Shown here: piece by piece, positions 23,517 to 26,661 of the stretch
How the letters are laid out: every line of letters starts with the position of its first letter
How positions within the stretch are numbered: position 1 is the stretch's first letter
From: Terrimonas pollutisoli
GTDB lineage: Bacteria; Bacteroidota; Bacteroidia; Chitinophagales; Chitinophagaceae
Direction of reading: 5' to 3'
Assembly (NCBI RefSeq): GCF_029360765.1
Contig: NZ_JARKNA010000001.1
Coordinates: 124,001 to 188,000 of the forward strand
DNA length: 64,000 nt
Program-made: the position numbers and the translations under genes
Notes under the pieces: generated by a model
Databases searched by the model: none
What the model was told of the DNA's origin: nothing
Seen by the model: the letters and a program-made list of their open reading frames with translations, nothing else

Positions 23517-24518
23517 TGTAGTTATTATGAAAACTTTGGTTACAGAAAGGTTATAGGTCAGGAAAAGGGTTATGTTTCCCTCTCTTATGTCAATAGTGAA
23601 GGGAAAAAGATAAAGGATAGCTGTTTGCTTATGAAAGGACGTTTTGCCTTCACTGGAAAGATCACAGAGCCTACTATGGGTTTTCTAAGAGGACAGGTAA
23701 GTTCAATGGAAGATAACGATCCTAATGCGACAAGTTTTTATCTTGAACCGACCCGAATGAAGATAGTGGTTAAATTTAATCTATTCAAAAAGGCTAAAGT
23801 GGCCGGTTCAAAAACTCAGGTTGAGAATGAAAAATTGAATGCTCAAATCAGTCAAATAAAAGACACAGGCGCTGTGTATATAGCTAAAGTGAATAGAGTG
23901 TTGAAAAGTTTCATATATAATCACTCCAATTCCTATGTAAGTGTTTTTAAACTTTTGCTTAATAGGTATCGATGGCCCTTTGACACAGTTCGATTGCTTT
24001 ATGAAAGACTAGACCCTGGATTAGTGAAGAGTTATTATGGGATTCCTTTGACTGCTTCCGTTAATGAAATGCGTGAGAATTCAGCTGGTAGACCTGCTAA
24101 AGAATTTTCCACTTTAGATATTAACAACAGTCCATTACAATTGACAATGTTTAAAGGTAAATATATCTTATTAGATTTTTGGGCTAGTTGGTGCGTCCCA
24201 TGTAGAATATCAGTTCCCAATTTTTTGAAGTTGTATGATAAATATCATACTAAAGGACTTGAAATAATAGCAATATCTGTAGACAAGGACAGCACTGCAT
24301 GGAGAAACGCCGTGCGAGTTGACCATACTGAAATCTGGTACCATATCCGCAGCGACGGCGGTACAAAAGATACTGTCAATATCGCTAACAAATATGGTGT
24401 TCGGTTTTACCCAACAAAAATGCTTATTAACAGAGAAGGAACGATTATTGGCCGCTATTCAGGCACAGAAGAAGATCACTTATTGAATAGTAAGCTTAGT
24501 GAATTGATGGGTGAGTAA
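23517..24518 (+). pseudogene. DUF4369/TlpA-like thioredoxin protein lacking start codon and signal peptide
   Basis: Frame open from 23517 reads YRKVIGQEKGYVSLSYVNSEGKKIKDSCLLMKGRFAFTGKITEP (DUF4369-like) with no ATG before 23631. C-terminal thioredoxin domain has WASWCVPC. Confidence 0.65.
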
Positions 24519-24570
24519 AATTGAAATAGTAAAAATATTAAGGGATCGTAGATAAAATGAATGAATAAGT

Positions 24571-24654
24571 GTTTTTCCTTTCTACAAACAGCCCGACATC
24601 ATGGACTGCGGCCCAACTTGCATTGAGGACTTACAATATTTTCTTTTGGAATAG
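24571..24654 (+). pseudogene. remnant of N-terminal C39 peptidase domain of a bacteriocin-type ABC exporter (PCAT)
   Basis: Translation VFPFYKQPDIMDCGPTCIEDLQYFLLE*, matching the C39 N-terminal block with the catalytic-Cys motif DCGPTC. The ATG at 24561 is in a different frame. Confidence 0.75.
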
Positions 24655-24774
24655 TACCCTGAAAGAAAAGCCCGGCGGTACTAAACTGATGTGGCCACAT
24701 TGGTTGCCGGGCAGCCAAAGCCTTTGAAGCTTAAAACTAAGGCAGACACAATTTTTAAACTTTAAATTTCAAAA

Positions 24775-24978
24775 ATGAAAATGCAAAAAATGAGCCTTGC
24801 CAGCATCACGGGAAAGTTAAGCAGGGCGGAAATGAAAAAAATTATGGCGGGAAGTGGAGCAGGATGTGGCACTGCATGTAATACCACCTGTACACATTCC
24901 GACGGCAGGGCAGGTAACTGTCATATGCCAACTGAAGGGCCTAATATGGGAAAGTGTTTTTGCGTTTCTGGGTATTAA
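24775..24978 (+). CDS. small Cys-rich precursor peptide with GG-type leader (Bacteroidetes natural-product precursor type)
   Basis: MKMQKMSLASITGKLSRAEMKKIMAGSGAGCGTACNTTCTHSDGRAGNCHMPTEGPNMGKCFCVSGY; leader motif KLSRAEMKKIMAG; six core cysteines. Confidence 0.85.
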   Translation: MKMQKMSLASITGKLSRAEMKKIMAGSGAGCGTACNTTCTHSDGRAGNCHMPTEGPNMGKCFCVSGY

Positions 24979-24998
24979 TATTTTGATATTTTGGTTTA

Positions 24999-25033
24999 AG
25001 CTGCAGTACTTAATTAGGTGTACTGCAGCTTTG
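24999..25033 (+). terminator. terminator after the precursor peptide gene
   Basis: Perfect 11-bp stem agctgcagtac / gtactgcagct followed by ttgtt. Confidence 0.8.
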
Positions 25034-25126: not shown

Positions 25127-26251
25127 ATGCGATTACATATTAGTTTTGTGATAGTATTATGCCTGACAACCATTGCTGCTGTTCATGCGCAAAAGTATCG
25201 GGCTCCCTCAGTAAACATAGGTGATCCCGCTCCGCCTATGCGGGTGTATAGTTGGATAAAAGGGACACCTGTCAATATTTTTGAGAAGGGGAATATCTAT
25301 GTTGTGGATTTATGGGCAACATGGTGCCAGCCTTGTATCGCCGAAATGCCTCGTCTTTCCGCTTTGGCCCGTAAATACAGAGGTCATGTTACTGTTCTTG
25401 GTGTAGATGTTTTGGAGAGGAAAACTACAACACTGCGCAAAATAAAAACCTTTGTTGACAGTATGGGTGCGCAAATGGACTATAATGTGATTATGGCAGA
25501 CAGCGGTCAGATAGAGAAAGACTGGCTCAGTGCCACTGAGGAAATGGGTATTCCTACAACTTTCATAGTAGATAGGGAAGGAAGGCTTGGATGGATGGGC
25601 CATCCCTGCGATAATTTCGAAGATGCTCTATCCAAAATTGTGAATGGTAGTTGGGATATTAATAAGGCATTGGCGAAAAGAAATTTAGAATTTCGATTGA
25701 GAAACCTGGAGGATTCATTAAAAGAGCAATTAGAGTTTGCACCAAATGGGAATTATAGAAACGATAGTTGGAAACGGGATTCCGCATTATTACTGGTAGA
25801 TGAAGTGGCGAAAGCCGAACCCCTGGTAAAATATACTCCCATGGTAGCTTCTCAAATATTCTCTACATTACTTAAGACAAATACGAAAAAAGCCTACGAA
25901 TATGGTAAAGAGGTTCTTGAAACAACCACTTACGAGAAACCTGCTGGCTTTATTATCAGTGGAGCCATAGAGAGATTATCAAGCGAGATTAATTTCCCTC
26001 CGGAAATCTATCAATTGGGCCTTGATGCTATTCAGGTAGAATTAGATGAAGTTCTCTCCTGCTATCCGGAAATTAGAAAAGTCTATAAACATTATTACAA
26101 AAGGGCAAAGTGGTATGGGGTCTTGGGTAATAAATCAAAAGCAGTTGAGGCATTGGAAAAAGCTATTGAAATTATGAAATCTCAAAACGACTATCTGGAA
26201 ACAGATCTGGCTCTGTGTGAGGCATGGTTAAAACAATATAAAAAAATGTAG
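25127..26251 (+). CDS. TlpA-like thioredoxin family protein with C-terminal helical (TPR-like) region
   Basis: Signal peptide; VVDLWATWCQPCIAEMPRL; GIPTTFIVDREGRLGW. Confidence 0.88.
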   Translation: MRLHISFVIVLCLTTIAAVHAQKYRAPSVNIGDPAPPMRVYSWIKGTPVNIFEKGNIYVVDLWATWCQPCIAEMPRLSALARKYRGHVTVLGVDVLERKTTTLRKIKTFVDSMGAQMDYNVIMADSGQIEKDWLSATEEMGIPTTFIVDREGRLGWMGHPCDNFEDALSKIVNGSWDINKALAKRNLEFRLRNLEDSLKEQLEFAPNGNYRNDSWKRDSALLLVDEVAKAEPLVKYTPMVASQIFSTLLKTNTKKAYEYGKEVLETTTYEKPAGFIISGAIERLSSEINFPPEIYQLGLDAIQVELDEVLSCYPEIRKVYKHYYKRAKWYGVLGNKSKAVEALEKAIEIMKSQNDYLETDLALCEAWLKQYKKM

Positions 26252-26277: not shown

Positions 26278-26661
26278 ATGAAACAACATTTCTCCATTGG
26301 TCATGCTCAGCTGCTAGTAACGGACCATATTAACCCGGGGAATACCAATTATTACGTAGAAGCGCTGATACAACAATATATTTTTGGGAAAGTAAAAAAA
26401 GGGCAGCAGGTGCTTTTAAAGTTTCCAGCATATACCTGCCATGAATTTGGCACTGGGAAGGGAGTTGTTGAATTGATCAACGCAACGCCTTCAGACAGTG
26501 GTTATCTTGCAAAAGTTTCTTTGCAGGGGGGATTAATCACTAACTATAAAAAACAACTCCGTTATAATGACAAGCTTCCTGTGCAGGCGGATATTATTAC
26601 TGAAAACCTGAACCTGCTTCAAAGAGTTTTTTATAATCTCAGAAAAAATATATCCCGATAA
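26278..26661 (+). pseudogene. C-terminal remnant of HlyD-family membrane fusion protein (bacteriocin secretion type)
   Basis: NYYVEALIQQYIFGKVKKGQQVLLKFPAYTCHEFGTGKGVVELINATPSDSGYLAKVSL...LQRVFYNLRK; no N-terminal TM or coiled-coil portion present. Confidence 0.8.

What the first reader, a model, noticed from the sequence alone, without database searches (positions are those of the whole stretch)
24775..24978. 67-aa precursor with KLSRAEMKKIMAG leader and six-cysteine core
The leader resembles Bacteroidetes GG-type natural-product precursors. Cleavage after AG would release a core of about 40 aa, SGAGCGTACNTTCTHSDGRAGNCHMPTEGPNMGKCFCVSGY, with six cysteines (possibly three disulfides). It has its own strong terminator (24999-25033), so it looks like a discrete transcription unit.
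Basis: partly seen in the sequence, partly recalled or inferred. Interest (0 to 1): 0.7.

Follow-up and report, generated by a model that had tools for sequence, protein, structure and literature searches.

The report
Orphaned disulfide-peptide gene under pseudoknotted RNA
The small gene is a real precursor of a secreted, disulfide-rich peptide whose export and folding machinery has been deleted from this genome, and it sits right behind an apparently undescribed, pseudoknotted RNA structure that precedes almost all of its relatives and probably controls how much peptide is made.

Summary
The ORF (24775-24978) is real. Its 26-residue leader (KMSLxxxxGKLSRAEMKxIMAG) recurs in 16 of 299 same-family genomes in front of hypervariable cores; 25 of 27 cores sampled have an even cysteine number. 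Relatives sit in intact cassettes: C39-like/VKOR/DsbA fusion, precursor(s), TlpA, C39-peptidase ABC exporter, HlyD. Here the cassette is wrecked. Only 18 codons of the C39 exporter remain, fused to the last 10 codons of the VKOR-DsbA gene; HlyD keeps its last quarter; the upstream TlpA gene has lost its signal peptide; the genome has no C39 peptidase and no VKOR.

The main new result lies just upstream. Window 24635-24746 is a conserved structured RNA: four helices plus a pseudoknot. Over 38 distinct sequences, 91% of pairs form and 31 of 39 show compensatory changes; the pseudoknot was left out of the search model and still covaries. 35 of 41 copies in 23 loci lie just before such a precursor; several others precede cassette genes. 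It matches no Rfam family and was confined to one bacterial family in about 1,000 genomes. Its biochemical role is inferred, not shown.

The parts
24775..24978 (+). Precursor gene, 67 aa: leader residues 1-26 (ends IMAG), core 27-67 with six cysteines (C-x3-C-x3-C-x9-C-x11-C-x-C, with G two before the fourth)
24635..24746 (+). Structured RNA element, 28 nt before the start codon; covariance-model match 122.5 bits, the only copy in the genome
24639..24669 (+). Helix P1: 24639-24649 with 24659-24669 (11 pairs)
24652..24683 (+). Pseudoknot helix P2: 24652-24658 (in the P1 loop, begins with the UAG stop of the upstream remnant) with 24677-24683 (7 pairs)
   Evidence: not in the search model
24670..24712 (+). 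Helix P3: 24670-24676 with 24706-24712, enclosing hairpin P4 (24685-24692 with 24697-24704)
24713..24743 (+). 3' module: helix P5 (24720-24724 with 24739-24743) and candidate pseudoknot P6 (24713-24715 with 24729-24731)
24568..24621 (+). Remnant: 18 codons (SVFPFYKQPDIMDCGPTC) matching the N terminus of C39-peptidase ABC exporters
24622..24654 (+). Remnant: last 10 codons and stop (IEDLQYFLLE*) of a VKOR-DsbA fusion gene, joined directly to the exporter remnant; overlaps P1 and P2 of the RNA
24998..25031 (+). Terminator-like hairpin after the precursor, weak T tract
   Evidence: not scored
25127..26251 (+). Intact TlpA-like thioredoxin with TPR-like C terminus, 374 aa, signal peptide-like start; 45% identical to the cassette TlpA of Niastella vici
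26278..26661 (+). HlyD adaptor remnant: only the last 111 residues (335-445 of the N. vici protein, 48% identity)
23625..24518 (+). TlpA/ResA-like thioredoxin with DUF4369 N-terminal region; homology extends upstream to a stop without signal peptide: 5'-truncated

Best explanation
This is what is left of a Chitinophagaceae peptide-secretion cassette: one precursor gene plus its own cis-acting structured RNA leader. SHOWN by comparison: conserved leader with hypervariable even-cysteine cores; relatives' cassettes with C39-like/VKOR/DsbA fusion, TlpA, C39 ABC exporter and HlyD; a conserved pseudoknotted RNA 25-71 nt before the start codon, often directly after the VKOR-DsbA gene; loss of the exporter and VKOR here. 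INFERRED: in intact relatives the peptide is cut after the AG/GG, exported as a peptide of 30-60 residues and oxidised to 2-4 disulfides, acting as an antagonistic (bacteriocin-like) peptide. INFERRED: the RNA acts on the polycistronic message at the junction between the oxidase gene and the precursor, folding into a compact stack that sets precursor yield, either as a 5' barrier stabilising the precursor part of the message or by changing translation on binding something. No terminator and no start-site-sequestering stem lies between the RNA and the ATG, so stability or translation control fits better than transcription attenuation. In this strain the precursor is an orphan: it may be made, but no cognate C39 peptidase can process and export it.
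For: Leader conservation. Even cysteines in 25/27 cores, none in leaders. Intact cassette in Niastella vici (L032) with Pfam VKOR, Thioredoxin_4, Peptidase_C39, ABC domains. RNA: 89% paired and 0/500 shuffles in the starting alignment; 91% paired, 31/39 pairs with two-sided change, covariation 0.543 vs 0.195 shuffled and at most 0.130 slid; pseudoknot P2 outside the model 92% paired, 6/7 pairs compensated; RNAalifold finds P1 and P3 unaided; MFE of the window copy alone gives P1, P3, P4, P5 and leaves both P2 strands free. Location: one copy in the 6.3 Mb genome; 35 of 41 copies precede a precursor, 18 follow a VKOR-DsbA gene. The RNA model found precursors in genomes that the precursor search had missed (G030, G053, G102, G140). 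Decay.
Against: No expression, processing or activity data. The 3' module (P5/P6) is less well supported than P1-P3 (83% paired for P5, gap-prone alignment). In 12 loci the P1/P2 5' strands overlap the end of the VKOR-DsbA coding sequence, so part of the conservation there is coding; but copies lying wholly after the stop keep the same helices (L092-L095, L040). If the cassette is dead, it is odd that this RNA copy scores highest; it was however in the seed alignment, and the loss may be recent.
Confidence: 0.68

Rival explanations
1. The RNA is a riboswitch or protein-binding leader: it senses a metabolite, redox state or the cassette's own product and switches translation of the precursor and of some cassette genes.
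For: Compact pseudoknotted fold, near-invariant unpaired stretches in the 3' module, occurrence before precursors and before other cassette genes (TlpA/DUF4369 in L092 and L094, C39 exporter in L085). GCU 24729-24731 can pair with AGC 24713-24715 or, in relatives, with a second AGC, a possible switch.
Against: No visible expression platform: no terminator and no stem occluding the start codon in the 28 nt before the ATG. No ligand lead. Confined to one bacterial family.
Confidence: 0.3
2. The element is a self-cleaving or processing RNA that cuts the message between VKOR-DsbA and the precursor.
For: Intercistronic position; helix order (P1, P2 5' strand, P1', P3, P2 3' strand, P4, P3') is, from memory, the order in the pistol ribozyme.
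Against: No Rfam match to any ribozyme even at E 10 or over eight member loci; almost no unpaired nucleotides between P4 and P3 on the 3' side, where pistol holds its cleavage site (from memory).
Confidence: 0.08
3. The conserved stretch is a DNA site (recombination or duplication boundary) that helps tandem precursor copies spread, not an RNA.
For: Tandem precursors each carry a copy (L036, L042, L045, L095); some copies bring along the end of the VKOR-DsbA gene (L036:3307).
Against: Pseudoknot covariation is not expected of a duplex DNA site; copies keep similar distance and the same strand relative to the ATG; no integrase noted beside it.
Confidence: 0.07
4. The precursor is still functional here, exported by another system or acting inside the cell.
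For: Precursor, RNA and downstream TlpA are intact; two other RNA-positive genomes (G053, G250) also lack C39.
Against: No C39 peptidase or VKOR in a 100%-complete genome; in G250 precursors are also truncated (29 and 41 aa), which looks like decay.
Confidence: 0.2

Closest known systems
Bacteroidetocins (Coyne et al. 2019, PMC6671954)
   Same: Bacteroidota, GG-type leader, cysteine core with presumed disulfides, linked thiol oxidoreductase and C39-peptidase ABC exporter
   Different: Leader 15-16 aa there, 26 aa here; unrelated 42-aa class IIa-like core; TM protein and thiol oxidoreductase instead of VKOR-DsbA fusion; no RNA element found in the text searched
NCBIfam NF047798 (leader_Chryseo, bacteriocin-like protein) and NF047792 (CCPGW family putative bacteriocin)
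   Same: Leader core motif; NF047798 matches all 27 precursors tested weakly (best 2e-5), NF047792 matches 9
   Different: Window protein scores 14.6 bits against NF047798, cut-off 23.5
TIGR04149 GG_sam_targ_CFB
   Same: KLSRxEMKxIxGG-type leader
   Different: 15.1 bits vs cut-off 25; only 4 of 27 relatives match at E<1; no radical SAM enzyme among the cassette genes scanned in L032
Downstream-peptide motif RNA (RF01704; PMC2864571)
   Same: Structured RNA in the 5' UTR of short ORFs of unknown family
   Different: Cyanobacterial, different motif; no Rfam match to our element
Defensin-like (CS-alpha-beta) bacteriocins such as actifensins (PMC6989792)
   Same: Cysteine spacing C-x3-C ... GxC ... 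CxC (comparison from memory)
   Different: Low-confidence AlphaFold models show three strands and no helix in the core; Pfam Toxin_3 E 0.14, below cut-off

Membership tests
Double-glycine-leader peptides exported by C39 ABC transporters | Conserved leader ending in GG/AG with hypervariable core across homologues | tested here: met
Double-glycine-leader peptides exported by C39 ABC transporters | Linked C39-peptidase ABC exporter | tested here: not met
   In this genome only an 18-codon remnant and no C39 anywhere; C39 found in 15 of 18 RNA-positive genomes
Double-glycine-leader peptides exported by C39 ABC transporters | Cleavage after the AG and export | not testable with these tools
   needs mass spectrometry
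TIGR04149 rSAM-modified RiPP precursors | Score over curated cut-off (25 bits) | tested here: not met
   15.1 bits
TIGR04149 rSAM-modified RiPP precursors | Radical SAM maturase in the locus | tested here: not met
   none among seven cassette proteins of L032 scanned nor in the flanking window genes scanned
NF047798 bacteriocin-like protein leader | Score over curated cut-off (23.5 bits) | tested here: not met
   14.6 bits
Disulfide-bonded peptides | Even number of core cysteines across the family | tested here: met
   25/27
Disulfide-bonded peptides | Disulfide-forming enzymes linked | tested here: inconclusive
   VKOR-DsbA fusion upstream in relatives; deleted here, TlpA retained
CS-alpha-beta defensin-like peptides | Helix plus two-stranded sheet fold | tested here: inconclusive
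   models of pLDDT 63 and 76 show strands only in the core; Foldseek finds nothing significant
Known Rfam RNA families | Match to any of 4227 models | tested here: not met
Cis-acting structured RNA | Compensatory changes supporting the fold | tested here: met
Cis-acting structured RNA | Consistent position and strand before one gene class | tested here: met
   35/41
Cis-acting structured RNA | Effect on expression of the downstream gene | not testable with these tools
   needs reporter assay

The most novel reading that the evidence does not exclude
A previously undescribed class of pseudoknotted RNA governs a whole family of disulfide-rich secreted peptides in Chitinophagaceae, sensing a signal (for example redox state, the maturation machinery or the peptide itself) and switching peptide production at the oxidase-precursor junction.
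Probability: 0.35. Interest if true: 0.78.

Novelty: new variant of a known kind. Interest (0 to 1): 0.62.

Why it matters
The peptide alone is a new member of a known kind. The RNA in front of it is the surprise: a well-covarying pseudoknotted RNA without an Rfam match, tied to one class of secreted peptides and their disulfide machinery. It gives a search handle that finds precursors the protein search had missed, as it did in four genomes here, and raises a directly testable question of what it senses or does. The decayed locus also warns that genome mining for antimicrobial peptides can pick up precursors that their host can no longer mature or export.

Tried and rejected
TIGR04149/radical-SAM RiPP: below cut-off, no rSAM gene seen. 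CS-alpha-beta defensin fold: attractive cysteine spacing, but AlphaFold models (pLDDT 63 and 76) show a three-stranded sheet and Foldseek against PDB gives nothing significant; left as a lead. Second precursor in this genome: the C23 match (E 0.84) is chance level. RNA outside the family: one hit in a same-class genome (E 1.4e-4, L084) lies inside an outer-membrane efflux protein gene, read as chance. Bacteroidota -33/-7 promoter pattern: no exact match in the window. Sigma-70-type promoter scan: no excess over shuffles. Pistol ribozyme: same helix order from memory, but no Rfam match and no room for the catalytic loop. No same-genus genome is held other than the window's own, so the decay could not be dated. 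Literature: eight searches found neither this RNA nor this cassette described; the library lacks most subscription papers.

Full report
OBSERVATION. The ORF at 24775-24978 exists as described. Its 26-residue leader ends in IMAG and the 41-residue core has six cysteines. The leader pattern occurs once in the six-frame window against 5e-7 expected from composition. The 3' hairpin is real (24998-25031, -19.5 kcal/mol, z -3.5) although its T tract is weak and the terminator scan does not report it.

RELATIVES. A protein search over 299 same-family genomes finds matches in 16, the window's own included, and a scan of GTDB contigs gives 17 loci, most of them titled Chitinophagaceae or relatives: Niastella, Ferruginibacter and metagenome-assembled genomes. 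They share the leader (KxMSLxxxxGKLSRAEMKxIMAG) and differ almost completely in the core. Of 27 cores, 25 have 4, 6 or 8 cysteines; leaders have none. Several cores, including the window's, share C...C...GxC...CxC. Many genomes carry several copies. In curated libraries the window protein stays below every cut-off (TIGR04149 15.1/25 bits, NF047798 14.6/23.5), while NF047798 ('bacteriocin-like protein') matches all 27 sequences weakly.

THE INTACT CASSETTE. In Niastella vici (L032) the order is: C39-like/VKOR/DsbA fusion (541 aa), two precursors, TlpA-like protein (45% identical to window 25127-26251), C39-peptidase ABC exporter (733 aa), a DUF6625 gene, HlyD (445 aa), then further genes including a glycosyltransferase. 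Fifteen of 18 genomes with the RNA element have C39 domains.

THE WINDOW CASSETTE IS WRECKED. (a) 24568-24654 reads SVFPFYKQPDIMDCGPTC-IEDLQYFLLE*: the first 18 codons of a C39 exporter joined to the last 10 codons and stop of the VKOR-DsbA gene. (b) HlyD keeps only residues 335-445. (c) The upstream TlpA/DUF4369 gene has homology running 5' of its first start codon into a stop, without signal peptide (intact relative). (d) The 100%-complete genome has no Peptidase_C39 and no VKOR. The precursor, its RNA leader and the downstream TlpA are intact. Export and maturation of the core by the cognate route is therefore unlikely in this strain. Two other RNA-positive genomes (G053, G250) also lack C39, and G250 has truncated precursors, so such decay recurs.

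THE RNA ELEMENT. Translating the stretch between the remnant and the precursor in three frames gave matches in all three frames to non-coding DNA before other precursors, which means DNA-level conservation. blastn gives 70-89% identity upstream of many precursors. An alignment of 16 shows P1 (11 pairs), P3 (7), P4 and P5, plus a pseudoknot P2 between the P1 loop and the segment after P3's 5' strand. Counted on that MAFFT alignment: 89% of cells paired, 19 pairs with two-sided changes, none of 500 shuffles as good, slid controls 35-52% paired. RNAalifold proposes P1 and P3 by itself and a further pairing P6. Folding the window copy alone gives P1, P3, P4 and P5 with both P2 strands unpaired. 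A covariance model without P2 found more members; on 38 distinct sequences 91% of cells pair, 31 of 39 pairs have two-sided changes, and the covariation score is 0.543 against 0.195 shuffled and at most 0.130 slid. P2, unseen by the model, is 92% paired with 6 of 7 pairs compensated, and P6 95% paired. Related sequences inflate shuffle tests, but the slid controls keep relatedness and stay far below.

WHERE IT OCCURS. One copy in the 6.3 Mb genome. 13 of 299 genomes of the family and 14 of 399 of the order have it, all in the same family; in 396 phylum genomes the only hit outside the family is inside an unrelated protein gene. Large scans used strict filters, so divergent copies may be missed. 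Of 41 copies in 23 loci, 35 precede a precursor, with the start codon 25-71 nt (mostly 27-45) after the element; 18 follow a VKOR-DsbA gene, and in 12 of these the stop codon lies at element position 18-20, where P2 begins; other copies lie wholly after the upstream gene. Exceptions precede a TlpA/DUF4369 gene (two), the C39 exporter (a truncated copy), or other genes. The model found precursors in G030, G053, G102 and G140, which the protein search had not. No Rfam 15 family matches: the window copy gave only chance-level matches at E up to 10, and eight loci holding members gave none at E up to 0.5.

HOW IT MOST LIKELY WORKS. Shown: conserved fold, position and gene association. Inferred: it is transcribed with the cassette and tunes precursor yield. 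There is no terminator and no start-codon-sequestering stem between the element and the ATG, so message stability or translation is more likely than transcription attenuation. Ligand or protein sensing, self-cleavage and a DNA role are kept as rivals with the tests named. The overlap with the VKOR-DsbA stop codon suggests that ribosomes finishing the oxidase gene could disturb P1/P2, coupling precursor output to oxidase translation; this is speculation.

WHAT IT IS LIKE. It works like bacteroidetocin loci (GG leader, cysteine core, thiol oxidoreductase, C39 exporter; PMC6671954) but with a different leader length, core and enzymes, and with the RNA. The nearest precedent for the RNA's setting is the cyanobacterial Downstream-peptide motif (PMC2864571), a 5'-UTR RNA before short ORFs in another phylum. 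Fold predictions of the core are low confidence and match nothing significant.

VERDICT. Observation confirmed; interpretation right about the kind of gene, probably wrong about a working product in this strain; the undescribed RNA leader is the part worth pursuing. Novelty of the RNA rests on absence from Rfam 15 and from a limited open literature.

Noticed in passing
window 24713-24743: GCU at 24729-24731 can pair with AGC at 24713-24715 (P6); in most relatives a second AGC downstream offers a mutually exclusive partner. The window has lost the second partner. Possible switch element.
   Followed up: partly
L044:11706-11785, same place as L085:4146-4225: Truncated copy of the RNA element (P1 kept, P3-P4 lost) about 150 nt before the C39 exporter gene.
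   Followed up: partly
L092:10748-10859, L094:2063-2174: Full RNA elements directly before TlpA/DUF4369 genes rather than precursors, hinting at a cassette-wide regulon.
   Followed up: partly
L003, L007, L012, L018, L027, L037: A diverged sub-group of elements (TTTTCTGCAGGAGTAGTGCCCTGTGGAAAA...) keeps P1, P2, P3 and P4 by eye with different sequences and a shifted register; not modelled separately.
   Followed up: partly
L038 (G250): Another exporter-less array with several TlpA-like genes, several RNA elements and two truncated precursors (29 and 41 aa).
   Followed up: no
L032:13903-20072: DUF6625, UDPGT-like and other putative glycosyltransferase-related genes interleaved with or following the exporter genes in Niastella vici; a possible further modification of the peptides.
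   Followed up: no
L036:3307-3418: The tandem second element carries along a copy of the VKOR-DsbA gene end, showing that 'gene end + RNA + precursor' duplicates as one unit.
   Followed up: partly
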